This document shows positions 25,431 through 35,065 of a stretch of DNA of 64,000 nt, in pieces. The notes below the pieces were generated by a model. The model searched no databases, was not told the origin of the DNA, and was given only the letters and a program-made list of their open reading frames with translations. Positions within the stretch are counted from its first letter, which is position 1; every line of letters starts with the position of its first letter. A program made the position numbers and the translations under genes. Origin of the DNA: Candidatus Solirubrobacter pratensis (GTDB taxonomy: Bacteria > Actinomycetota > Thermoleophilia > Solirubrobacterales > Solirubrobacteraceae); assembly GCF_000425945.1 (NCBI RefSeq), contig NZ_AUEK01000008.1:310001-374000 (forward strand), in the 5' to 3' direction.

Positions 25431-25798
25431 GCGAGCGGCCGAGGATCATCGAGCGGCTGCTGCAGCGCCAGGAGCACCACCGCACGCGGCATCCCGTGTT
25501 CCGGATCGCCTGGGGCGCCGCCGGCTTCCTCGTCCTGATCGCCGGCGTGATCATGCTCGTCACGCCCGGGCCGGCGTTCGTGCTCATCCCCCTCGGCCTG
25601 GCGATGCTCGCGCTCGAGTTCGAATGGGCGGAGCGGCTGCTCGAGAAGGCGCTCGAGGAGGCCGAGAAGGCCAAGCGGCGCGCGGAGAACGCGACGCGCA
25701 CCCAACGCGTACTCGGCATCGCCGGAACGCTCGCCGTCGTCGCCGCGTGCGTCGCCGCGGTGATGCTCGTCAACGTACCGGTGCTGCCCGACTCCTGA
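25427..25798 (+). CDS. PGPGW/TIGR02611-type small membrane protein
   Basis: A 123-residue protein with a basic N-terminus and two closely spaced helices around the signature VTPGPAFVLIPLGLAMLALE. A charged amphipathic stretch follows (EKALEEAEKAKRRAENATR), then a C-terminal helix (GTLAVVAACVAAVMLVNV). The family is widespread in actinobacteria and of unknown function. Its 3' end overlaps the end of the ETF-beta gene on the other strand by 29 bases. Confidence 0.8.
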   Translation: MSERPRIIERLLQRQEHHRTRHPVFRIAWGAAGFLVLIAGVIMLVTPGPAFVLIPLGLAMLALEFEWAERLLEKALEEAEKAKRRAENATRTQRVLGIAGTLAVVAACVAAVMLVNVPVLPDS

Positions 25799-26516
25799 GA
25801 TAGCCGTGGCGCTCGAGGAAGCCGAGCAGCGCGTCGGCGGCCGCTGAGGCGCCGAGCGGCCCGAGCACCGTCGGCGGCTCGCGCGCCTCGTCGACGCCGG
25901 TGAGTGCGCGCAGCCGCGCCGTGGCGTCGCCGGCCGGGGGCGGGACGACGCGCGGCGGCGGGCGGAACGGCAGCGTGGCGGTGACCTTCACGCGGCTGCG
26001 CGGCGGCGGGTCGGCGACGTGCCGGATGTCCGGCTCCCGCAGCAGCGCGCCGAGCGGCGCGCGCCGGACGCGGACGCCCGCGGCCTCCACGGACACGACC
26101 GCGGGCCCGTCGATGCGCAGGCGCTCGCGCAGGCCGTGGTCGAGCCGGCGCTCGGCGATCCCGTGCTCGATCCGCACGACGCCGAGCGCCTGCGGGACGC
26201 CGAGCTCGTGGGCGAGCAGGGCGGGAAGCGTGCCGTGATCGCCGCACAGGACGAGCGCGCCGCGCAGCTCGGCGGCGAGGGCGGCGGGATCGCCGTGCGC
26301 GAAGCGGACGGTCGGGGCGAGCGCGGCGACCTCGCCCAGGTCCGCGCCGGCCGGCGCGACGCAGACGGCGCGCGCCTGGCCGAGCCGCAGCGCGTGCTCG
26401 AGCGCCGCCCAGTCGGCGGGCGGGAACCCGTAGAAGGCGCCGAGGACCGCGCCGGTGAGCGGATCGACCGCCGTCCGCACGGCGGTCCAGCGCAGTACGG
26501 CGGCGACGTCAGCCAT
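25770..26516 (-). CDS. Electron transfer flavoprotein beta-like subunit (mycofactocin-associated, FixA type)
   Basis: A 248-residue divergent ETF beta. It keeps an ADWAALEHALRLG-type opening, an internal GDPAALAAELRGALVLCGD nucleotide-site region, and PQALGVVRIEHGIAERRLDHGLRE ahead of GPAVVSVEAAGVRVRRAPL. That last stretch is the usual ETF-beta signature region. It is last in a six-gene minus-strand operon with FixX, FixC, ETF alpha and two FadH/OYE oxidoreductases. In mycofactocin genomes such ETFs are proposed to move electrons from mycofactocin-dependent dehydrogenases to the quinone pool. Its start overlaps the fixX stop by 8 bases. Confidence 0.75.
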   Translation of the reverse strand: MADVAAVLRWTAVRTAVDPLTGAVLGAFYGFPPADWAALEHALRLGQARAVCVAPAGADLGEVAALAPTVRFAHGDPAALAAELRGALVLCGDHGTLPALLAHELGVPQALGVVRIEHGIAERRLDHGLRERLRIDGPAVVSVEAAGVRVRRAPLGALLREPDIRHVADPPPRSRVKVTATLPFRPPPRVVPPPAGDATARLRALTGVDEAREPPTVLGPLGASAAADALLGFLERHGYLRSRAAPVR

Positions 26517-26802
26517 GGTGGAAGACGACGCCCATCCCGCCGTCGGGGTAGCTCCACGAGATCGCGCCCTCCTCGTTGCAGACCATGTAACAGGTGCCGC
26601 ACTCGAAGCACTGCTCGTAGTTGAAGAGGATGCCGCCGTCGGCGGTGAGGGCGAACAGGTCGGCCGGGCACGCGGTGACGCACGCCTTGGTCGAGCAGCC
26701 CTCGCACACGCGCGAGTCGACGCTGATGTGCGGCCGCTCGGCGACGCGGAACTCGACCGTCGCCATCCGATCCTCGAAGGCGATGCCGGCGTAGCGCGTC
26801 AC
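26509..26802 (-). CDS. FixX-like ferredoxin
   Basis: A 97-residue ferredoxin-like protein. The first cluster-type cysteines are CEGCSTKACVTACPADLF and the second group is CFECGTCYMVCNEEGAI, giving the FixX/ETF-QO C-terminal ferredoxin pattern. It pairs with FixC to form an ETF:quinone oxidoreductase. The GTG start at 26802 overlaps the fixC stop. Confidence 0.9.
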   Translation of the reverse strand: MTRYAGIAFEDRMATVEFRVAERPHISVDSRVCEGCSTKACVTACPADLFALTADGGILFNYEQCFECGTCYMVCNEEGAISWSYPDGGMGVVFHHG

Positions 26803-28097
26803 CGGAACGCCCTCGCGGCCTTCAGCCCGTCGCTCGCCAGCTCGCGCAGCCGCAGCCCGTGCCGCGCGGCCGTGCGCCGCGCGAGCCGCCCCAGGCCGGG
26901 CTTCGGCGTGGGATTCGTGACGGTGAAGGCACCCTCGACGAGGTCGCAGATCAGGCCGGGGTAGCGCTGCTGGATCCGCTGCGACAGCACGAGCTCAGGC
27001 GCGCGCCGCAGCCGCTTGTGGTCCCGCAGCACGAAGTCGGACTCGAGCGCGCGGCGGTAGCTCGCCAGCGCGCGCTCGGACACGTCGCCGCGCTCCAGCG
27101 CCGCCGCCGCAGCGCGGCCCGCGGCGAGCCCGGAGCCGATCGCGAAGTTCACGCCCTCCAGCCACAGCCCGGTCGCGAGGGCGAGGCCGGCGGCGTCGCC
27201 GGCGACGAGCAGCCCGTCGAGCGCGAGCTTGGCGGGCAGCGCGTCGTAGCCGCCCTCGGGGATCAGGTGCGCGGAGTACTCGAGCAGCTCGCCGCCGCGC
27301 ACGTAGGGCGCGATCGCCGGGTGCCGCTTGAGCGCGGCGACGACCTGCTCAGGGCGGATCCTCGCCTTCGCGAGGTGCGGCAGCGAGAGCACGGCGCCGA
27401 CCGCCAGCGTGTCCGCGCCCGTGTAGAGGAACCCGCCGCCCGGGATGCCGAGCGTGCCGCCGAGGATCTCGAGGTCCAGCCCCTCGTCCCCGTGCAGGCC
27501 GAAGCGCTCGTCGATCGCCTCGCGCGGCAGCGAGAGCACCTCCTTGACGCCCAGCGTGTGGCGCGCGGCGTCGGCGCGCGGCAGCAGTCCGGCCTCCTTG
27601 GCGAGGAACGAGTTGACGCCGTCGCAGGCGATCACGACGCGTGCGGGGAGGTCGCCGCCGGGGCGGTCGGTGCGGACGCCTGCCACGCGGCCGCGCGCGT
27701 CGCGCAGCAGGCTGGTCGCGACCGTCGATGTCACCAGCCGCGCGCCCGCCTCGACCGCCTTGTCGGCGAGCCACGAGTCGAAGCGCGCCCGGTAGGTCGT
27801 CATGCCGTTGTACGGCGCCTCGCCCCAGGCCTGGGTGCGGAAGTCGACGGTCAGCGCCTGGGTCTCGGTCAGCACGGCGGTCGAGCGGCGGACGACCCAG
27901 CGCTCGACCGGCACCTCCTCCCACCAGCGCGGGACGACCGCGTCGAGGACGCGTCCGTACACGACGCCGCCGTAGACGTTCTTCGCGCCCGGGAACGGCC
28001 CGCGCTCGAGCAGCACGACGTCGCGTCCCGCCTGCGCCAGCGAGAGCGCGGCGGCGGCGCCCGCGGGACCGGCGCCGACGACCACCGCGTCAAGCAT
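26799..28097 (-). CDS. FixC-like FAD-dependent ETF:quinone oxidoreductase
   Basis: A 432-residue flavoprotein. It opens with the Rossmann FAD motif VVVGAGPAGAAAALSLAQAG, has GMTTYRARFDSWLADKA, and a later FAD-contact block LLVAGDAAGLALATGLWLEG typical of FixC/ETF-QO. Its iron-sulfur partner is the separate FixX ferredoxin gene immediately downstream. ATG 28097 is chosen because it begins directly before the FAD motif; the longer frame start has no support. It overlaps the ETF-alpha stop by 8 bases. Confidence 0.92.
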   Translation of the reverse strand: MLDAVVVGAGPAGAAAALSLAQAGRDVVLLERGPFPGAKNVYGGVVYGRVLDAVVPRWWEEVPVERWVVRRSTAVLTETQALTVDFRTQAWGEAPYNGMTTYRARFDSWLADKAVEAGARLVTSTVATSLLRDARGRVAGVRTDRPGGDLPARVVIACDGVNSFLAKEAGLLPRADAARHTLGVKEVLSLPREAIDERFGLHGDEGLDLEILGGTLGIPGGGFLYTGADTLAVGAVLSLPHLAKARIRPEQVVAALKRHPAIAPYVRGGELLEYSAHLIPEGGYDALPAKLALDGLLVAGDAAGLALATGLWLEGVNFAIGSGLAAGRAAAAALERGDVSERALASYRRALESDFVLRDHKRLRRAPELVLSQRIQQRYPGLICDLVEGAFTVTNPTPKPGLGRLARRTAARHGLRLRELASDGLKAARAFR

Positions 28098-29001
28098 CGA
28101 GCCGCCGCACGAGCTCGTCGAGCAGGGCGCGCGCATCGGCCACGATCGCGAGGTCGGCCATCGCGCTCATCGGGCATGCCGCGTCCGTGTTGACGCTGAC
28201 GATGTGCGCCGGGCGCCCGAGCCCCGCCGTGTGCTGGCTCGCCCCCGCGACGCCGAGCGCGACGTAGAGCTCCGGGTCGATCAGCGCGCCGGTCGTCCCG
28301 ATCTGCCGTTCGCGGGCGATCCAGCCCGCGTCGGTGGCGACGCGGGTGGCGCCCGCCGCGGCGCCGAGCGCGGCGCCGGCGCGCTCGAGCAGCTCGAACG
28401 CCGCCCGGCCCTCGCCGGGGTCGGAGACCAGCCCGCCGCCGCCGCCGAGCACGAGGCGCGCGTCGGCCAGCTCGCGCGTCTCCGGCTCGAGCACCTCGAG
28501 CACCTCGGGGTCGGGCGCGTCGTCAGGGACCTCGAGCGGGATCCGCTCGCGCGAGGCGACGGCGGCCCGCGGCGTGAGCGAGCCGGGCTCGAGCGTCGCG
28601 ACGGCGGGCGCGGGAGCCTCGCACCGCAGCAGCGTGCGGGACTCGTGGCGCGAGAGCTCGGCGCGCACGGTCTCCCCGTCGAGCGCGACGGAGATCGCCC
28701 CGTCGAGCAGTGGGCGATCCAGCGCGGCGGCGAGGCGCGGCGCGAGGTCGCGCCCGTCCGGCGACGCGGGAAGGATCACGAGCGCGGCCTCGGCCAGCAG
28801 CGGCGCGAGCGCCGCGGTCAGCGCCGCGGCCCGCAGCCCCGGACCGGTGTCGCACCAGTGGGCGCGCGCCGCCAGCTCGCCGGCGGCGGCGCGCGCGCCG
28901 TCGCCCACCACGATCGCCTCGCCGCCGGCCGCCGAGGCCGCCTCGGCGGCGCCCAGCGGCAGCCGCCCCGCGCGAGCGACGACGACGGCGACCGACCTCA
29001 C
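28090..29001 (-). CDS. Electron transfer flavoprotein alpha-like subunit (mycofactocin-associated, FixB type)
   Basis: A 303-residue ETF alpha. The C-terminal FAD domain is clear: ARLVLGGGGGLVSDPGEG, GATRVATDAGWIARERQIGTTG, then YVALGVAGASQHTAGLGRPA and IVSVNTDAACPMSAMADLAIV. These match the conserved ETF-alpha signature, with a normal GASQH (elsewhere G(I/V)SGAxQH). The N-terminal domain is divergent. The GTG start overlaps the upstream OYE stop. It acts with the beta subunit at 25770. Confidence 0.88.
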   Translation of the reverse strand: MRSVAVVVARAGRLPLGAAEAASAAGGEAIVVGDGARAAAGELAARAHWCDTGPGLRAAALTAALAPLLAEAALVILPASPDGRDLAPRLAAALDRPLLDGAISVALDGETVRAELSRHESRTLLRCEAPAPAVATLEPGSLTPRAAVASRERIPLEVPDDAPDPEVLEVLEPETRELADARLVLGGGGGLVSDPGEGRAAFELLERAGAALGAAAGATRVATDAGWIARERQIGTTGALIDPELYVALGVAGASQHTAGLGRPAHIVSVNTDAACPMSAMADLAIVADARALLDELVRRLDA

Positions 29002-30932
29002 AGTGCAACCGCCACCCGGTGGCCCTCCATGACCGCCGCGTGCGCGCGCCGCGGCGCGAGGCAGTCCCCGACGCGGTGGACCGGGAACTCGGCGTCGCGC
29101 AGCTTGTGCCACAGCTCGTCCTCCGGCGCCTGGTGCACCGCGCACACGACCCAGTCGAACGGGCGCCGCTCGCTCACGCCGGTCGGGTGGTGCAGCAGCG
29201 TCAGCGCGTCGTCCTCTACGCCCATCGGCACGAGGTCGGTCGCCTGCCGGATCCCCTTGGCATGCGCTCTCACGTTCCAGGTCTCCAGGTCCAGCGTGAG
29301 GCCGAGATCCTGCCCGACCACCATCGCGTTCGTCACGATCTCGACGTCGCAGCCGCGATCGGCGAGCAACTCGGCGACCGAGGTCGCCTGATGGAAGCCG
29401 AGCTCGTCGACGACGATCACCCGCCCTGCCGGCGTCGCGCGGCCCGCGAGCACGTCGCGGACGTCGACCACGCGCTCGTGGCCGCCGGCCCACCACGGCG
29501 CGAGCGGCTTCGCGCCGGTCGCCAGCACGACCGCGTCCGGCGCCGCCCCGAGCACCTCGCCGGCGTCCGCCGCCACCCCCAGCCGCACATCGACGCCGAG
29601 CCGCCGCGCGTGCGCCGCGAGATTGCGCGTGAGGTCGAGCAGCTCCGCGCGGCTCGGCACGCCGGCGGCGAGCGGAACCTGCCCGCCGAGGCGGGCCTCG
29701 CGCTCGAAGACGACGACGTCATGGCCGCGCTCGGCCGCCGTGACCGCCGCCTGCAGCCCGCCCGGCCCGCCGCCGACGACCACGACGCGCCGCCGGCCGC
29801 CGGCCGCCGGCAGCGGCTCGGCCTCGCGCCCCACGCGCGGGTTCTCGATGCAGCCGAGCGGGCCGTTGAGCCCGACGCGCCCGACGCACTCCTGGTTGCA
29901 CGACAGGCACGTGCGGATCTCCTCGGCGTGCCCGGAGCGCGCCTTCGCGGCGAACTCGGGGTCGGCGATCTGCCCGCGCACGACGCCGACGAGGTCGCAG
30001 AAGCCGTCCTGCAGCGCGCGGTCGGCCTGCAGCGGATCCTTGAAGCGCCCGACGCCGACGACCGGCACGCCGACCGCGGCCCGGATCGCGCTCGGGATGA
30101 ACATCGCGTACCCCGGCGGGACCTGCATGCTCGCCTCGATCATGTACAGCGTCGCCGTCGCCACGCCGATCGACGTGTTGATGTAGTCCACCAGCCCCGT
30201 GGCGTCGGCCATCCGCGCGACCGCGACCGCCTCGTCGATCGTCGTGCCGCCCTCGAGCAGCTCGTCGCCGCACAGCCGCACGCCGAGCGCGCGCGAGCCG
30301 CCGATCGCCTCGCGCACCGCCGCCACGATCTCCAGCAGCAGCCGCGCCCGGTGCTCGAGCGCGCCGCCGTAGCGGTCCGTGCGCCGGTTGGTCAGCGGCG
30401 AGAGGAAGCCGCGCACGAGCGAGGAGTGCGAGCACTGCAGCTCGACGCCGTCGAAGCCGCCCTCGGCGCAGCGCGCCGCGACCGTCGCATAGCCGTCGAT
30501 CACCTCGCGGATCTCCTGCTCGCCGATCGCCATGGGCACCTCGCGGAACAGCGGGTCGGCGACGGGGCTCGGGGCCCACACCGGCAGCCGCGTGTACATG
30601 CCCGACGACTGCCCGCCGTTGTGGTTGATCTGCGCGAGGATCGGGACGTCGTGCGCGTGCACCGCGTCGGTGATCGCGCGGTAGCCCGGCAGGACCTCGG
30701 GCCGGTACGCGTGGATCAGCTTCTCGTACGGCCAGTCGGTCGGATGGGTCGAGTGCTCCTCGGTGACGATCAGCCCGGCCCCGCCCGCGGCGCGCGCGGC
30801 GTAGTACGCGGCGTGGCGGGCCGTCGGCAGGCCGTCTTGGGCGTAGTTGGTCAGGTGCGCCGCGAACACGATCCGGTTGCGGACGGTCAGCGGGCCGATC
30901 CGCAACGGCGTGAACAGACGCGCGTAGGTCAC
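28998..30932 (-). CDS. FadH/OYE-type NADH:flavin oxidoreductase, mycofactocin-associated (copy 1)
   Basis: A 644-residue multidomain oxidoreductase resembling 2,4-dienoyl-CoA reductase. An FMN-binding TIM barrel (ARLFTPLRIGPLTVRNRIVF onward, with QINHNGGQ and VQLQCSHSSLVRGFLSP-type segments) spans residues 1-350. A 4Fe-4S ligand set CLSCNQECVGRVGLNGPLGC follows, then a FAD/NAD domain with VVVVGGGPGGLQAAV near residue 385. It ends in HRVGDCLAPRRAHAAVMEGH. It matches the described mycofactocin-system FadH/OYE family by context. GTG 30932 overlaps the stop of copy 2. Confidence 0.88.
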   Translation of the reverse strand: MTYARLFTPLRIGPLTVRNRIVFAAHLTNYAQDGLPTARHAAYYAARAAGGAGLIVTEEHSTHPTDWPYEKLIHAYRPEVLPGYRAITDAVHAHDVPILAQINHNGGQSSGMYTRLPVWAPSPVADPLFREVPMAIGEQEIREVIDGYATVAARCAEGGFDGVELQCSHSSLVRGFLSPLTNRRTDRYGGALEHRARLLLEIVAAVREAIGGSRALGVRLCGDELLEGGTTIDEAVAVARMADATGLVDYINTSIGVATATLYMIEASMQVPPGYAMFIPSAIRAAVGVPVVGVGRFKDPLQADRALQDGFCDLVGVVRGQIADPEFAAKARSGHAEEIRTCLSCNQECVGRVGLNGPLGCIENPRVGREAEPLPAAGGRRRVVVVGGGPGGLQAAVTAAERGHDVVVFEREARLGGQVPLAAGVPSRAELLDLTRNLAAHARRLGVDVRLGVAADAGEVLGAAPDAVVLATGAKPLAPWWAGGHERVVDVRDVLAGRATPAGRVIVVDELGFHQATSVAELLADRGCDVEIVTNAMVVGQDLGLTLDLETWNVRAHAKGIRQATDLVPMGVEDDALTLLHHPTGVSERRPFDWVVCAVHQAPEDELWHKLRDAEFPVHRVGDCLAPRRAHAAVMEGHRVAVAL

Positions 30933-32944
30933 GCGCCGAGGTCCCGCGCGAGCCGGCGCCCCTCCAGGATCGCCGGCAGGACGCCGCGCGGCGCGACGCA
31001 ATCCCCCGCTCGCGGCCCGGGCAGCGACTGGTCCGGGAGCCGGTGGCCGCAGTCCACCACGACCGCGCAGGGGACCTCGCGCCGCTCGCCGGTCCACACG
31101 TCCTCGAGCACGGCCCGCCCGTGGCCCGCCTCGCGGATCATCGAGCGCAGCTCGCGCCCGATGCCGGCGCGCTGCAGGCGCCCGTTGGCGTCGGCGAGAT
31201 CGCCGGTGCGCGCAAGCTGCACGCCGGCGACCTGGTCCTGCGTGACGAGCGAGACGGTGCGCCCGGCGGCGGCGAGCCACTCGGCGACGGCGACGCCGGC
31301 CACGTCGCCGACGGGGTCGTGGACCAGCACCGCCCCTTCTGGGAGGGCGGCGCCCGCGAGCGCCGAGAGCGCGTCGACGGAGGGGAAGGTGGTCCGCGCC
31401 GGACGCGAGCCCGTGGCGACGATGACGTCGCGGCGCCGGTGGCCGGGCGGCGCCGCGACGGCGGTGCGGTGGCCGGCGACGTCCGCGGCCGGGAGCCATC
31501 CCCGGCCGGCGTGCGAGCCCGCAGCGGCGCCGGCGGCCTCGAGCGCGATGGGCTGGACGGTCATGCCGGCCTCTTCGCCCGCGGCGAGCGCCTCGCTCGG
31601 GGTCACCTCGCGGCCGAGCTCGATCGTGACGCCGAGCCAGCGGCACTGCTCCTCCAGCCAGTCGCAGAACTCCACCATCCGCGGGTTGCCGAGCTCGCGG
31701 CCGACGATGCGCAGCGCGCCGCCGGTGAACGCCTCGCGCTCCGCGACGGTGACCGTGTGCCCGAGCAGCGCCAGCTCGCGCGCGCACTCGAGCCCCGCCG
31801 GCCCCGCGCCGACGATGAGCACCTCGCGCGGCTCGCCGCCTCCGGCGTGCGTCAGCGTCTCGTAGCCGCTCTCGGGCTCGACGATGCAGCTCACGACTTG
31901 GTTGCGCGGGTCGCGCACGCGGCACGCCTGATTGCACAGGACGCAGGGGCGGATCTGCTCCGGCGTGCCGGCGCGCACGTGCGCGACGAAGCGCGGGTCG
32001 GCGATCTGGGCGCGCGTGCACTCGACGAGGTCGGCGGCGCCGACCGACACGGCCGCGGACGCGTCGCCGGGATCGACCACGCTGCCCTGCAGGACGACCG
32101 CGCAGCGGCCCGCGGCGGCCCCCCGCATCCGCGTGCAGAGCGCGCGGTTGAAGAGTGGCTCCACGTGCGCGTCGGGGCGGTAGGCGGTGACCGAGAACGG
32201 CCCGCCGCGCACGACGGTGAGGAGGTCGATCGCGTCCGCGAACGCGTCCACGTGCTCCTCGGCCTGCTCGGGCGTGATGCCCGCCCACGGCGCCAGCTCG
32301 TCGCACGACAGGCGCAGCGCGAGCACCCGGTCCGCGCCGATCGCGTCGCGCACCGCGGCAAGCACCTCGCGCGTGAAGCGCAGCTTGTCGGCGCCGTACT
32401 CGTCGCCGCGCAGGTTCGTCAGCCCTGAGTGGAACTGCCGCAGCAGCGAGATCGGGCCCGCGTCGATCTCGACGCCGTCCAGCCCGGCGGCGGCGGCCAG
32501 CGACGCGGCGGCGGCGAACCCGGCGACGACCGCGGCGATCTCGTCGCGCTCCATCGGCGCCGGCATCTCACGGCTGATCGCGTCGGCCACGCGTGACGGG
32601 CCCCACAGCACCGCCTGTGAGTACGCGCTCGAGCCCTGCGCGCCGGCGTGGCCGAGCCCGGCGAGCACGAGCGTCCCGTGCGGGCGGCACACGGCGGCGA
32701 CGGTGCGCCAGCCCGCCGCGCACTCGCGCGCCAGCGGCGCGCGCTCGTAGGGCCAGTCGGAGTCGTGCACCGAGGCGGTCTCGGTGACGATCACCCCGGC
32801 GCCTCCCGCGGCCCGCGCCGCGTAGTACGCCACGTGGCGCGAGGAGATCGAGCGCCGGCGCCCGAGATTTGTCTCGTGCGGCCCGAAGACGACGCGAGTA
32901 GGGGCCGTCCTCGGCCCGACGGATAGAGGCTCAGCGAGGGTCAT
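30929..32944 (-). CDS. FadH/OYE-type NADH:flavin oxidoreductase, mycofactocin-associated (copy 2)
   Basis: A 671-residue homologue of copy 1. The barrel begins TLAEPLSVGPRTAPTRVVFG and carries SRHVAYYAARAAGGAGVIVTE, closely matching copy 1. Iron-sulfur cysteines are in CVLCNQACRVRDPRNQVVSC, followed by FAD site EVLIVGAGPAGLECARELAL. It ends PGPRAGDCVAPRGVLPAILE. It is the first gene of the operon, divergent from the TetR gene by 42 bases that include a palindrome. The substrates of both reductases are unknown. Copy 2 has a longer barrel-to-FAD spacing and more alanine-rich loops. Confidence 0.88.
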   Translation of the reverse strand: MTLAEPLSVGPRTAPTRVVFGPHETNLGRRRSISSRHVAYYAARAAGGAGVIVTETASVHDSDWPYERAPLARECAAGWRTVAAVCRPHGTLVLAGLGHAGAQGSSAYSQAVLWGPSRVADAISREMPAPMERDEIAAVVAGFAAAASLAAAAGLDGVEIDAGPISLLRQFHSGLTNLRGDEYGADKLRFTREVLAAVRDAIGADRVLALRLSCDELAPWAGITPEQAEEHVDAFADAIDLLTVVRGGPFSVTAYRPDAHVEPLFNRALCTRMRGAAAGRCAVVLQGSVVDPGDASAAVSVGAADLVECTRAQIADPRFVAHVRAGTPEQIRPCVLCNQACRVRDPRNQVVSCIVEPESGYETLTHAGGGEPREVLIVGAGPAGLECARELALLGHTVTVAEREAFTGGALRIVGRELGNPRMVEFCDWLEEQCRWLGVTIELGREVTPSEALAAGEEAGMTVQPIALEAAGAAAGSHAGRGWLPAADVAGHRTAVAAPPGHRRRDVIVATGSRPARTTFPSVDALSALAGAALPEGAVLVHDPVGDVAGVAVAEWLAAAGRTVSLVTQDQVAGVQLARTGDLADANGRLQRAGIGRELRSMIREAGHGRAVLEDVWTGERREVPCAVVVDCGHRLPDQSLPGPRAGDCVAPRGVLPAILEGRRLARDLGA

Positions 32945-32963
32945 CCGCGCTGCGGCGGAATAA

Positions 32964-32978
32964 TGGCATAGGATGCCA
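32964..32978. promoter_or_regulatory. Perfect palindromic operator in the MftR/OYE divergent promoter
   Basis: TGGCAT-AGG-ATGCCA is a perfect 6+6 inverted repeat with a 3-base spacer. A plus-strand TAGGAT hexamer (possible -10 of the tetR gene) lies inside it, so binding would block the promoter. It is the best candidate for the regulator's own site, controlling both directions. Confidence 0.6.
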
Positions 32979-32986
32979 AATCCCGC

Positions 32987-33577
32987 ATGGCGAACGCTCG
33001 AACACGGCCGGGCAGGCCAAGGACGACATCACGCCGCGAGGTGGCCCACGCGGCCCTGCAGCTGTTCTCCGAGCAGGGTTTTTCCGCGACCACGATGGAT
33101 GAGATCGCGGCGGCTGTCGGTGTCGGAACACGGACCTTGTTCCGCTACTACCCGAGCAAGAACGACATCGTCTGGGGCGAGTTCAGCCGGCAGCTCGAGG
33201 GGCTGAGAGAGCAGCTCGCGCAGGCGGACCCCGAGGAGCCGCTGATGGATGCGCTGCGCCGCGCCGTGGTCTCGTTCAACGACTACGGTGAGGCCGAGCT
33301 CGGAGAGCTGCGGATCCGCATGACGCTGATCACGACGGTGCCTGCGCTGCAGGCCCACTCGATGCTGCGCTACCGCGAGTGGAGCGCGGTCGTCGCCGAG
33401 TTCGTCGCCGCCCGCACCGGTGCGAGTCCCGAGGACCACGTCCCGCAGGTGATCGCCGACGCCGCGCTCGGCGCCGCGACCGCCACCTACCGGCACTGGA
33501 TCCGCCACCCGGAGGCCGACCTGCTGACCGAGCTCGACCGCGCCTTCCGGCTGCTCGCCTGCCTCAGTCGGACTTGA
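32987..33577 (+). CDS. mftR: TetR-family regulator, MftR-like (mycofactocin system)
   Basis: A 196-residue TetR protein. The DNA-binding domain is HAALQLFSEQGFSATTMDEI then AAAVGVGTRTLFRYYPSKND, closely fitting the MftR consensus, which has TTMDxIAxxVGVxxRTxFRYFPSKNDI. The rest is the helical ligand domain. Described MftR proteins sense long-chain acyl-CoAs. It is divergent from the OYE/ETF operon over a palindromic 15-bp site, so it likely represses that operon and itself. Its 3' end overlaps the O-methyltransferase end by 14 bases. Confidence 0.85.
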   Translation: MANARTRPGRPRTTSRREVAHAALQLFSEQGFSATTMDEIAAAVGVGTRTLFRYYPSKNDIVWGEFSRQLEGLREQLAQADPEEPLMDALRRAVVSFNDYGEAELGELRIRMTLITTVPALQAHSMLRYREWSAVVAEFVAARTGASPEDHVPQVIADAALGAATATYRHWIRHPEADLLTELDRAFRLLACLSRT

Positions 33578-34151
33578 CGGCGAGCAGCACGCCGGCGCCG
33601 ACCGTGACCAGCGTGCTGGTGACCTGCGCGTCGCCGTAGACCAGCTCGGAGAACTCGGTCAGCTGGTTCGCGTGCGAGAGCGTGTTGTCGACGACCAGCA
33701 GCCCGTTGTCGCGCAGGACCCGGACGAGGTGCGGCCAGTAGCCCACGTACGCCGGCCGCTCGGCGTCGAGGAACACGAGGTCGAACGAGCCGTCGCCGAG
33801 CTGCGCCAGCACCTCGCCGGCGTCCGCCGTGCGCAGCTCGACGAAGCCGTCGACGCCGGCCTTCGCCAGGTTGGCGCGCGCGAGCGCCGTGCGCTCGGGC
33901 TCGACCTCGAGCGACAGCACCGAGCCGCCGACCGCCTCGGCGGCGTCGGCGAGCCAGATCGTCGAGTAGCCGTTGGACGTGCCGATCTCGAGCACCCGCT
34001 TGGCCTGCATCGAGCGCACGAGCACCCCGAGCAGCTCGGCGGTCTCGGGCTCCACGTTGCGGAAGCGCTGCAGGCGGTCCTCCAGCGCCTCGTCGTGCGC
34101 GCGGCTGGAGGCGAACAGCTCGTCGAGGAACGTCTGCCGTTCGGTGTCCAT
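33564..34151 (-). CDS. SAM-dependent O-methyltransferase (family 3)
   Basis: A 195-residue class I methyltransferase of the catechol/caffeoyl-CoA type. The SAM loop is VLEIGTSNGYSTIWLA and the acidic motif II is LSLEVEPERTALARANL. The metal/substrate region shows DLVFLDAERPAYVGYWPHLV followed by GLLVVDN. The acceptor is unknown; small aromatic diols are typical. The start at 34151 touches the aldo/keto reductase stop (TGATG), so the two genes are coupled. Confidence 0.87.
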   Translation of the reverse strand: MDTERQTFLDELFASSRAHDEALEDRLQRFRNVEPETAELLGVLVRSMQAKRVLEIGTSNGYSTIWLADAAEAVGGSVLSLEVEPERTALARANLAKAGVDGFVELRTADAGEVLAQLGDGSFDLVFLDAERPAYVGYWPHLVRVLRDNGLLVVDNTLSHANQLTEFSELVYGDAQVTSTLVTVGAGVLLAVKSD

Positions 34152-35065
34152 CAGGCCGAGGCCTCGGTGAGCGTCGCGAGCTCCTCGTCGGTCAGCTTCA
34201 GGCCGACGGCGGGCAGCAGCGCCTCGAGCTGCTCGACGCTGCGCGCGCTGGCGATCGGCGAGACGACGCCCGGCTGCGCCGACAGCCACGCGAGCGCGAC
34301 GGCGGCGACCGGCGCGGCGCGCTCGGCGGCGACCTGGTCGAGCGCGGCCAGCACGCGCTCGCCGCGCCCGTCGAGGTACGCGAGCGCGCCCTTGGAGCGC
34401 GGGCTCTCGACGTCCGGGCCGCCCGGCCGGTACTTCCCGGTCAGGAACCCCTTGGCGAGGGCGTAGTACGGCAGGCAGGCGAGGTTGTGCTCTTCGACGA
34501 CGGGAGCGTACTCGCGCTCGTAGCCCTCGCGCTCGACCAGGTTGTAGTGGGGCTGCAGCGCGACGTACTCGGCGAGACCCTCGCGCCAGGAGACGTCGAG
34601 CGACTCGCGCAGGCGCTCCGCTGACAGGTTGGACGCGGCGATGTGGCGCACCTTGCCCTCGCGCACGAGCTCGTCGAACGCGCGCAACGTCTCGGCCACC
34701 GGGGTGTCGAGATCGTCCTTGTGGGCGTAGTAGAGGTCGATGCGGTCGGTCTGCAGCCGCCGCAGCGACGCCTCGGCGTGCTCGCGGATGTTCCCGGCCG
34801 AGAGCCCGCCGTCGGACCCCACCTTGGTCGCCAGCACGATGTCGTCGCGGTTGCCGCGCGCGGCCATCCAGCGCCCGATGATCGTCTCCGACACGCCCAT
34901 GTTCGGGCGCATGTAGGTGTCGGCGGTGTCGATGAAGTTGCCGCCGGCGGCCGCGTATGCGTCCAGGACCGCGAAGGAGTCGGTCTCGTCAGCGGTCCAC
35001 CCGAAGACGTTGCCGCCCAGGCAGAGGCGGAAGACGTCGAGCTCCGTGGTGCCGAGGTTCGCCAT
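34151..35065 (-). CDS. Aldo/keto reductase
   Basis: A 304-residue NADPH-dependent reductase of the AKR superfamily. The tetrad members are visible in FIDTADTY (Asp, Tyr) and LYYAHKDD, with the conserved catalytic lysine ILATK-type (IVLATKVGSDGG). The cofactor end carries SPIASARSVEQLEALL. TAGGTT 6 bases before ATG 35065 suggests a leaderless transcript. It precedes the O-methyltransferase, and together they could modify a phenolic or aldehyde compound. Confidence 0.9.
   Translation of the reverse strand: MANLGTTELDVFRLCLGGNVFGWTADETDSFAVLDAYAAAGGNFIDTADTYMRPNMGVSETIIGRWMAARGNRDDIVLATKVGSDGGLSAGNIREHAEASLRRLQTDRIDLYYAHKDDLDTPVAETLRAFDELVREGKVRHIAASNLSAERLRESLDVSWREGLAEYVALQPHYNLVEREGYEREYAPVVEEHNLACLPYYALAKGFLTGKYRPGGPDVESPRSKGALAYLDGRGERVLAALDQVAAERAAPVAAVALAWLSAQPGVVSPIASARSVEQLEALLPAVGLKLTDEELATLTEASA

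What the first reader, a model, noticed from the sequence alone, without database searches (positions are those of the whole stretch)
25770..33577. Mycofactocin-type redox operon without the mycofactocin biosynthesis genes
Six overlapping minus-strand genes (two FadH/OYE oxidoreductases, ETF alpha, FixC, FixX, ETF beta) face an MftR-like TetR gene. In known genomes these families co-occur with mftABCDEF. I searched both strands around the cluster for a precursor ending in the MftA C-terminus and found none in this window. Either the core is elsewhere, or this electron-transfer module serves other enzymes here. It may be a standalone module linking OYE-type reductases to the quinone pool.
Basis: partly seen in the sequence, partly recalled or inferred. 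Interest (0 to 1): 0.7.

Follow-up and report, generated by a model that had tools for sequence, protein, structure and literature searches.

The report
ETF-linked stand-in for mycofactocin enzyme MftD
This gene cluster belongs to a bacterium that carries the genes for the redox cofactor mycofactocin, and it most likely replaces the usual enzyme (MftD) for one late step of making it, passing the electrons through a flavoprotein chain towards the respiratory chain.

Summary
Six overlapping minus-strand genes (OYE1, OYE2, EtfA, FixC, FixX, EtfB) face MftR. OYE1, OYE2, EtfA and MftR pass NCBI's mycofactocin cut-offs; EtfB does not. The reading 'standalone module' is not supported. mftA-B-C-E, a mycofactocin-coupled SDR and two MftF genes lie on another contig of the same genome. 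No MftD was found in it.

MftD and OYE2 exclude each other. Of 396 genomes of the phylum, 73 carry mftC. MftD passes its cut-off in 57 of 73. The other 16 all carry OYE2, 14 over the cut-off and 2 just under; 0 of the 57 do. On an MftC tree of 106 rows, supported independent pairs go the opposite way, 8 of 8, median p 0.008. In 34 of 43 named loci with mftC the six genes follow it directly, the mftD slot. Against: 4 of 50 module genomes also carry MftD.

Best reading: OYE2-EtfAB-FixCX replaces premycofactocin synthase MftD, working like ETF-linked amine dehydrogenases. A 2024 paper noted part of this for 17 Saccharopolyspora clusters. Function is inferred, not shown.

The parts
25770..26516 (-). 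EtfB: mycofactocin-associated ETF beta-like protein, divergent
   Evidence: mft_etfB 166.4 bits, under the cut-off of 200; PF01012 26.1, just under its cut-off of 26.7
26509..26802 (-). FixX-like ferredoxin with 4Fe-4S motifs (GTG start)
   Evidence: Best NCBIfam model FixX 53.2 bits, under its cut-off of 166; several Fer4 models over cut-off
26799..28097 (-). FixC-like flavoprotein; with FixX it resembles a split ETF:quinone oxidoreductase
   Evidence: PRK10015 321.7 and FixC 312.9 bits, both under cut-off; ETFQO ubiquinone-binding domain PF21162 26.6, just under 27.7
28090..29001 (-). EtfA: mycofactocin-associated ETF alpha (GTG start)
   Evidence: NF038209 385.4 bits, cut-off 240; start checked
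28998..30932 (-). OYE2: three-domain FMN/4Fe-4S/dinucleotide flavoenzyme; proposed replacement of MftD
   Evidence: TIGR03997 999.7 bits, cut-off 793.15; fold of NCR, 2,4-dienoyl-CoA reductase, histamine and trimethylamine dehydrogenase
30929..32944 (-). OYE1: paralogue of OYE2 that lacks two positions I take to bind FMN; probable partner subunit
   Evidence: TIGR03996 816.7 bits, cut-off 627.9; profile alignment with OYE2
32964..32978 (.). Palindrome TGGCATAGGATGCCA in the 42-bp gap between mftR and OYE1; holds the GGCA-N5-TGCC core of the MftR operator
   Evidence: one of two TGGCAN5TGCCA places in 6.64 Mb, the reversed control pattern also has two; core from PMC8728441 (passages)
32987..33577 (+). 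MftR: TetR-family regulator, the only one over the cut-off in this genome
   Evidence: TIGR03968 251.6 bits, cut-off 224.9; 1 of 29 matches in the genome is over the cut-off

Best explanation
The cluster is the relocated half of a mycofactocin operon. OYE2 with its electron chain (EtfA/EtfB, then FixC/FixX) replaces MftD, the enzyme that oxidatively deaminates AHDP to premycofactocin. Proposed mechanism: OYE2's FMN takes a hydride from the carbon bearing the amine of AHDP (free or glycosylated); the imine hydrolyses to the alpha-keto lactam; electrons leave one at a time through OYE2's 4Fe-4S cluster to the FAD of EtfAB, then through FixC/FixX to the quinone pool. OYE1 is probably a non-catalytic partner. 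MftR, facing the operon across an operator-like palindrome, probably controls it. Shown: gene content, exclusion of MftD and OYE2, genomic slot, fold, sequence motifs. Inferred: substrate, direction of reaction, electron path, regulation.
For: (1) Exclusion: of 73 mftC+ genomes MftD is over its cut-off in 57; the other 16 all carry OYE2 (14 over the cut-off of 793 bits, G378 787 bits cut at a contig end, G326 764), and 0 of the 57 have it over the cut-off. Fisher p 3e-13 for the strict 14, not corrected for relatedness. (2) Phylogeny: MftC tree of 106 rows, 8 of 8 supported independent pairs opposite, median p 0.0078. Within family codes f1, f29 and f44 of the sample both states occur. (3) Slot: 34 of the 43 named loci with mftC have it followed by OYE1-OYE2-EtfA-FixC-FixX-EtfB; 14 continue straight to mftE (SDR genes disregarded). 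Close relatives of the window's genome have mftC-mftD-mftE instead (L066-L068). (4) Need: an M. smegmatis mftD mutant makes no premycofactocin and accumulates AHDP (PMC7491314, passages), so an MftD-less producer needs a substitute. (5) Product: PMC11162802 (passages) states that Saccharopolyspora mft clusters lack mftD, hold a TIGR03997 gene, and that S. erythraea was reported to make a methylated mycofactocin. (6) Chemistry: nearest solved folds include histamine dehydrogenase, an amine oxidase (6l6j) and trimethylamine dehydrogenase; trimethylamine and histamine dehydrogenases pass electrons through the 4Fe-4S cluster to ETF (PMC6502838 passages). (7) The second Rossmann motif of OYE2 resembles that of histamine dehydrogenase rather than the GxGxxG of the NADPH enzyme 1ps9.
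Against: No biochemistry. 4 of 50 whole genomes chosen for OYE2 also have MftD over the cut-off: one in a second mftA-E cluster plus an unlinked copy, three unlinked copies only. A fifth, Pseudofrankia G423, has a homologue at 420 bits, cut-off 470.85. By sequence and fold the top hits are reductases (NCR, 1ps9) ahead of the amine dehydrogenases. OYE2 lacks the tyrosine of the YGAH motif and the cysteine of the PHC motif that histamine dehydrogenase has at the aligned places. The 73-row tree alone gives 4 supported pairs, p 0.125. FixX and EtfB score under their model cut-offs. The genome is a 28-contig draft, 96% complete, so an absent MftD is not proven.
Confidence: 0.74

Rival explanations
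1. The module re-oxidises reduced mycofactocin (mycofactocinol) and feeds the quinone pool, that is, it replaces MftG, while some other enzyme does the MftD step.
For: MftG links mycofactocinol to respiration (PMC11778925, passages). 0 of the 12 mft_etfA genomes, and none of the 16 MftD-less genomes, is among the 18 of 73 with MftG over its cut-off. ETF and FixCX point to quinone.
Against: The anticorrelation is weak: 18 of 73 have MftG, Fisher p 0.03 uncorrected, and on the tree module and MftG contrast in only 0.3 of 4 independent pairs on average. Most mftC+ genomes here have neither MftG over the cut-off nor the module. It leaves the missing MftD unexplained.
Confidence: 0.13
2. The MftD step is done by a distant MftD/LldD-type homologue elsewhere in these genomes, and the module carries out an extra modification or serves a variant cofactor.
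For: 27 of the 50 OYE2-chosen genomes have MftD-family matches at E <= 1e-60 under the cut-off, and so do 4 of the 12 mft_etfA genomes of the sample (G247, G253, G378, G382).
Against: 19 of 50 and 8 of 12 have no match at E <= 1e-60, this genome among them. Such weaker matches also occur beside true MftD in many genomes, so they look like ordinary paralogues.
Confidence: 0.08
3. OYE1/OYE2 are client enzymes, for example ene-reductases or catabolic dehydrogenases that use mycofactocin, and the operon is a catabolic module.
For: The fold is shared with 2,4-dienoyl-CoA reductase and 2-naphthoyl-CoA reductase, the top hits. MftR of M. smegmatis responds to long-chain acyl-CoA (PMC8728441, abstract and passages).
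Against: Clients of mycofactocin vary in number per genome (PMC3023750, sections 9 and 10); one search shows one OYE2 over the cut-off in each of the 14 genomes. A client would not exclude MftD.
Confidence: 0.05

Closest known systems
MftD (premycofactocin synthase, TIGR03966)
   Same: Position after mftC in the operon, presence tied to mftC, and, as proposed, the reaction AHDP to premycofactocin
   Different: Unrelated family: MftD is an LldD-like FMN protein acting without a dedicated ETF; the module is OYE-type with ETF and FixCX. The window genome has no TIGR03966 match at E <= 1e-60
Trimethylamine, dimethylamine and histamine dehydrogenases
   Same: Three-domain OYE/4Fe-4S/dinucleotide fold, loss of the second GxGxxG seen in 1ps9, ETF as the likely acceptor, amine as the proposed substrate
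   Different: 25 to 29% identity over the fold; Fe-S cysteine spacing is of the CNQxC type seen in 1ps9 and NCR; the aligned YGAH tyrosine and PHC cysteine are absent
2,4-dienoyl-CoA reductase FadH, NCR, BaiCD
   Same: Closest by sequence and fold score
   Different: BaiCD model 407.7 bits against a cut-off of 825; no NADPH-type motif in the second Rossmann domain; operon partners are ETF and FixCX
FixABCX / ETF plus ETF:quinone oxidoreductase
   Same: EtfA, EtfB, FixC and FixX are encoded together
   Different: mft-specific EtfA; whether EtfB binds a second FAD or bifurcates was not tested
Saccharopolyspora mycofactocin-like clusters of BGCFlow (PMC11162802)
   Same: mft cluster without mftD that holds a TIGR03997 gene (passages)
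   Different: One genus; the passages seen call the FadH/OYE gene of unknown function and hold no mention of ETF ('electron transfer' and 'flavoprotein' 0 times)

Membership tests
Mycofactocin system OYE_2 (TIGR03997) | Score over 793.15 bits | tested here: met
   999.7 bits
Mycofactocin system OYE_1 (TIGR03996) | Score over 627.9 bits | tested here: met
   816.7 bits
Mycofactocin-associated ETF alpha (NF038209) | Score over 240 bits | tested here: met
   385.4 bits
Mycofactocin-associated ETF beta (TIGR04503) | Score over 200 bits | tested here: not met
   166.4 bits, full length matched; called EtfB-like by position and this partial score
MftR (TIGR03968) | Score over 224.9 bits | tested here: met
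   251.6 bits
MftR regulon | Operator with T-N2-GGCA-N5-TGCC-N2-A | tested here: inconclusive
   Core GGCA-N5-TGCC and the 3' A are present at 32964-32978; the outer 5' T is an A here. Exact core found upstream of mftA in 9 of 41 named loci
Mycofactocin biosynthesis genome | mftA, mftB, mftC and mftF present | tested here: met
   MftA 50.2/25, MftB 115.5/33, MftC 638.4/265, MftE 266.4/172, MftF 284.1/280 and 340.4/280 on contig C1
MftD (TIGR03966) | Score over 470.85 bits somewhere in the genome | tested here: not met
   No match at E <= 1e-60, 22 of 25 first-look candidates scored
ETF-linked amine dehydrogenase (TMADH/histamine dehydrogenase type) | Three-domain OYE, 4Fe-4S, dinucleotide fold | tested here: met
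   Foldseek TM 0.80 to 0.83 by query length to 3k30, 6de6 chain A and TMADH on a model of mean pLDDT 79
ETF-linked amine dehydrogenase (TMADH/histamine dehydrogenase type) | Four cysteines for a 4Fe-4S cluster | tested here: met
   C342, C345, C349, C361 invariant in 58 OYE2 rows
ETF-linked amine dehydrogenase (TMADH/histamine dehydrogenase type) | Covalent-FMN cysteine and active-site tyrosine (roles recalled) | tested here: not met
   Leu27 and Gln166 at the aligned places; the neighbouring His169 is kept
ETF-linked amine dehydrogenase (TMADH/histamine dehydrogenase type) | Oxidises an amine and reduces ETF | not testable with these tools
   Needs enzyme assays
Bifurcating FixABCX | EtfB with the second, bifurcating FAD; NADH use | not tested
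   EtfB was not analysed at residue level

The most novel reading that the evidence does not exclude
Mycofactocin maturation has two unrelated premycofactocin synthases. One is MftD. The other is an electron-transfer-flavoprotein-linked OYE/4Fe-4S amine dehydrogenase (OYE2-EtfAB-FixCX) that wires the last redox step of making a peptide-derived cofactor directly into the quinone pool. The two have replaced each other several times within one phylum, and in the window's genome the second system has been moved away from the core together with MftR.
Probability: 0.62. Interest if true: 0.76.

Novelty: new variant of a known kind. Interest (0 to 1): 0.64.

Why it matters
Mycofactocin needs MftD to form its redox centre in M. 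smegmatis (PMC7491314, passages), yet 16 of 73 mftC-bearing genomes of this phylum sample, and Amycolatopsis, Kutzneria and many Acidimicrobiia MAGs, lack MftD or do not have it in the cluster. If the ETF-linked module is a second premycofactocin synthase, it answers how these bacteria make the cofactor, gives functions to gene families named only by association, links cofactor maturation to respiration, and explains why rule-based genome mining that demands MftD misfiles such clusters, as PMC11162802 reports. It is directly testable by one gene deletion and one in vitro assay.

Tried and rejected
Standalone module: rejected, since every genome with OYE_2 (14 of 396) or mft_etfA (12 of 396) over its cut-off also has mftC.

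Hidden MftA in the window: none ending CG[VIL][YHF]. In the flanking locus L005 (10 kb upstream of the window on the same contig) the same scan and a blast with the core proteins found none.

Replacement of MftG: this was my first idea; the anticorrelation is weak, so it was demoted to a rival.

Contaminating contig as the source of the split: tetranucleotide profiles of the window and of the mft core locus correlate at 0.990, as do other loci of the genome (0.987 to 0.996), against 0.87 to 0.96 for four loci of relatives; rejected, though the genome's estimated contamination is 5.9%.

MftR control of the mftABC core by the same palindrome: no GGCA-N5-TGCC upstream of mftA in L004; the second genome-wide site, C5:272201, lies in a stretch where my references found no mft gene. 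Left open.

First structure model with 9 rows was weak (mean pLDDT 68.8); repeated with 58 rows (79.4). Only the second was searched against the PDB.

Literature: besides PMC11162802, the paper searches listed no paper that I recognised, from listings and passages, as assigning a function to this module. The library lacks most subscription papers. The MftD paper (JACS 2019), a 2019 mycofactocin review and the 2022 MftM paper were not held, so what they say is taken from papers citing them.

Rows dropped: G176, G309 and G325 (very long branches) were left out of the 106-row tree; 14 of the 50 named genomes were left out of it because their locus holds no mftC match of at least about 250 residues. 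G326 stayed in that tree labelled as having neither system, before one search showed its OYE2. 30 of the 80 named loci were not given to the whole-genome searches (limit 50).
Full report
OBSERVATION. The six minus-strand genes at 25770-32944 and mftR at 32987-33577 are as described, with overlaps of 4 to 8 bases. Against NCBI's curated cut-offs OYE1, OYE2, EtfA and MftR are over and EtfB is under. FixC and FixX match their families below cut-off and have no mycofactocin-specific hit in that call. No MftA C-terminus exists in the window.

WHERE THE CORE IS. The window is C6:310001-374000 of a 6.64-Mb, 28-contig draft (completeness 96.15%, contamination 5.91%). mftC is on C1 (638.4 bits, cut-off 265). 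Around it (L004) lie, on one strand, mftA, mftB, mftC, mftE, a mycofactocin-coupled SDR and mftF, with a second MftF gene divergent from mftA; all pass their cut-offs. Window and core have the same tetranucleotide profile (correlation 0.990). The only MftR over the cut-off in the genome is the one in the window (1 of 29 matches). No MftD match reaches E <= 1e-60.

RELATIVES. A scan of the species-genome collection with an OYE2 profile gave 80 named loci, the best of 311 candidates that encode a relative: Amycolatopsis, Saccharopolyspora, Kutzneria, Prauserella, Labedaea, Pseudofrankia and many actinobacterial MAGs. With reference proteins from the window, from L004 and from L066, 43 of 80 loci hold mftC; 42 hold the six genes collinear, 34 hold mftC directly followed by the six, and 25 have in addition a divergent mftR and mftB before mftC (SDR genes disregarded; many contigs are short). 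A typical order is mftR< mftA mftB mftC OYE1 OYE2 EtfA FixC FixX EtfB, then SDR, mftF and mftE in varying order. 0 of 80 loci matched MftD or MftG. Three members of the window genome's own family (L066-L068) have mftR< mftA mftB mftC mftD mftE instead. So the window shows the standard cluster with A-B-C missing between mftR and OYE1 and found, with E, SDR and F, on another contig. The module is not always linked: 16 of 80 loci show OYE2 without EtfA nearby, some at contig ends, and in G088 mftC, OYE2 and EtfA are on three contigs.

EXCLUSION OF MftD. Of 396 genomes drawn evenly from the phylum at 90% completeness or more, 73 have mftC over the cut-off. mft_etfA passes in 12, all among the 73 (scores 312 to 385 bits, next best 174). 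MftD passes in 57 of 73 and in none of the 12. The four left over (G176, G309, G325, G326) turned out to carry OYE2: TIGR03997 passes in 14 of 396, all within the 73 and none with MftD, and G378 (787 bits, cut at a contig end) and G326 (764 bits) are just under 793. The next match, 654 bits, is in G375, an mftC-negative genome. Four MftD genomes (G041, G220, G261, G334) have OYE-type matches of 504 to 562 bits, under the cut-off. In G176, G309 and G325 OYE2 directly follows a divergent mftC, with EtfA, FixC and FixX further on, but no OYE1 and no EtfB was recognised with my references; in G326 the order is mftC, OYE1, OYE2, EtfA, FixC, FixX, mftE. Thus OYE2 with EtfA, FixC and FixX is the common part and OYE1 is dispensable. 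Fisher p: OYE2 against MftD 3e-13 for the strict 14; mft_etfA against MftD 1e-10, against MftG 0.03. These ignore relatedness.

PHYLOGENY. On an MftC tree of the 73, the module label needs 8 changes, at least 4 on well supported branches; 4 supported independent pairs go opposite in 3.8 on average, p 0.125. With 36 named module genomes added and three very long rows left out (106 rows), 8 supported pairs go opposite in 7.9 on average, median p 0.0078, range 0.0078 to 0.0156. For MftG only 0.3 of 4 pairs differ on average.

EXCEPTIONS. Of 50 of the 80 named genomes searched whole, 49 have mftC over the cut-off; the fiftieth has one cut at its contig end. MftD is over its cut-off in 4: Saccharopolyspora ipomoeae (two copies, one in a second mftA-B-C-D-E cluster), S. 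aridisoli, Amycolatopsis sacchari and one bog MAG, whose copies have no other mft gene recognised in the 16 to 18 kb fetched. Pseudofrankia has a 420-bit homologue just under the cut-off, and 26 other genomes have weaker ones.

WHAT OYE2 IS. Its closest solved relatives by sequence are 2-naphthoyl-CoA reductase, 2,4-dienoyl-CoA reductase, 6l6j, histamine dehydrogenase and trimethylamine dehydrogenase; the model (mean pLDDT 79.4, pTM 0.71) finds the same set, 6l6j being titled an amine oxidase. Across 58 OYE2 proteins the four Fe-S cysteines, Gln101, Arg219 and Gly295-Arg296 are invariant; I take the last three positions as FMN contacts from recall of the OYE family. In the second Rossmann domain OYE2 reads DELGFHQATSVAE where the NADPH enzyme 1ps9 reads CGGIGFDTA and histamine dehydrogenase 3k30 reads DDDHYYLGGVVAE. 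OYE1 lacks the aligned Gln and Gly-Arg, so it may not hold FMN in the usual way. PMC6502838 (passages) states that trimethylamine and histamine dehydrogenases use ETF, with electrons going through the 4Fe-4S cluster; PMC8097209 (passages) describes the ETF-TMADH complex and the path from ETF to ETF:quinone oxidoreductase.

WHY THE MftD STEP. MftD converts AHDP to premycofactocin by oxidative deamination, and the M. smegmatis mftD mutant accumulates AHDP and its glycosides and makes no mycofactocin (PMC7491314, passages). PMC11162802 (passages) reports 17 Saccharopolyspora clusters with mftD missing and a TIGR03997 FadH/OYE gene of unknown function, and cites production of methylated mycofactocin by S. 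erythraea. Caution: that concerns the cluster, not the genome, and 2 of the 5 Saccharopolyspora genomes searched here carry MftD elsewhere.

REGULATION. The 42-bp gap between mftR and OYE1 holds TGGCATAGGATGCCA, with the GGCA-N5-TGCC core of the M. smegmatis operator (PMC8728441, passages). TGGCAN5TGCCA occurs at two places in the genome, as does the reversed control pattern, so the motif alone is not significant genome-wide; its position is what counts. The exact core lies upstream of mftA in 9 of 41 named loci and in L066, not in L067 or L068, and not upstream of mftA in this genome.

VERDICT. A real module of mycofactocin biosynthesis, most likely an ETF-linked replacement of MftD, displaced from its operon in this genome. 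The swap was half seen in print for one genus; the phylum-wide exclusion, the minimal OYE2-EtfA-FixC-FixX set and the amine-dehydrogenase mechanism were found in no paper listed by my searches. Biochemical function remains to be shown.

Noticed in passing
L004 7348-8649 (-) and 11680-12885 (+): Two MftF glycosyltransferase genes, both over the cut-off (340.4 and 284.1, cut-off 280), flank the mft core; why two is unexplained.
   Followed up: partly
window 33564-34289 (-): O-methyltransferase-like gene (PF01596) converging on mftR; could be tested as the mycofactocin sugar methyltransferase, but no evidence here.
   Followed up: no
L078 7938-15445 (bog MAG): An MftA-type C-terminus directly before OYE1 and the whole module, without mftB or mftC there; the same genome holds a second MftA with mftC on another contig (L153) and an unlinked MftD (L151). 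A split cluster like the window's.
   Followed up: partly
L150, L151, L152, L154: Unlinked MftD genes with no other mft gene recognised in the 16 to 18 kb fetched around each, in genomes that also have the module.
   Followed up: partly
L215, L216, L217: Divergent mft clusters (mftC 325 to 340 bits) with MftA ending AVDGICGVY, OYE2 directly after mftC, no OYE1 or mftE recognised; in L217 MftA lies about 5.5 kb from mftC.
   Followed up: partly
L129: The EtfB-FixX-FixC-EtfA block with mftE is inverted relative to mftC, OYE1 and OYE2, showing that the block moves as a unit.
   Followed up: no
L122, L126, L143: Contigs titled Bifidobacterium breve MAGs carry mft modules closest to Acidimicrobiia-type ones; probably mislabelled records.
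   Followed up: no
G000:C5:272201-272215: The only other TGGCAN5TGCCA site of the genome; none of my mft reference proteins matches within the 3 kb held.
   Followed up: partly
G000 C2:17926, C12:95490, C16:10699: Three GMC oxidoreductases resembling MftG but under its cut-off (305, 251 and 226 bits against 387), unlinked to the mft core.
   Followed up: no
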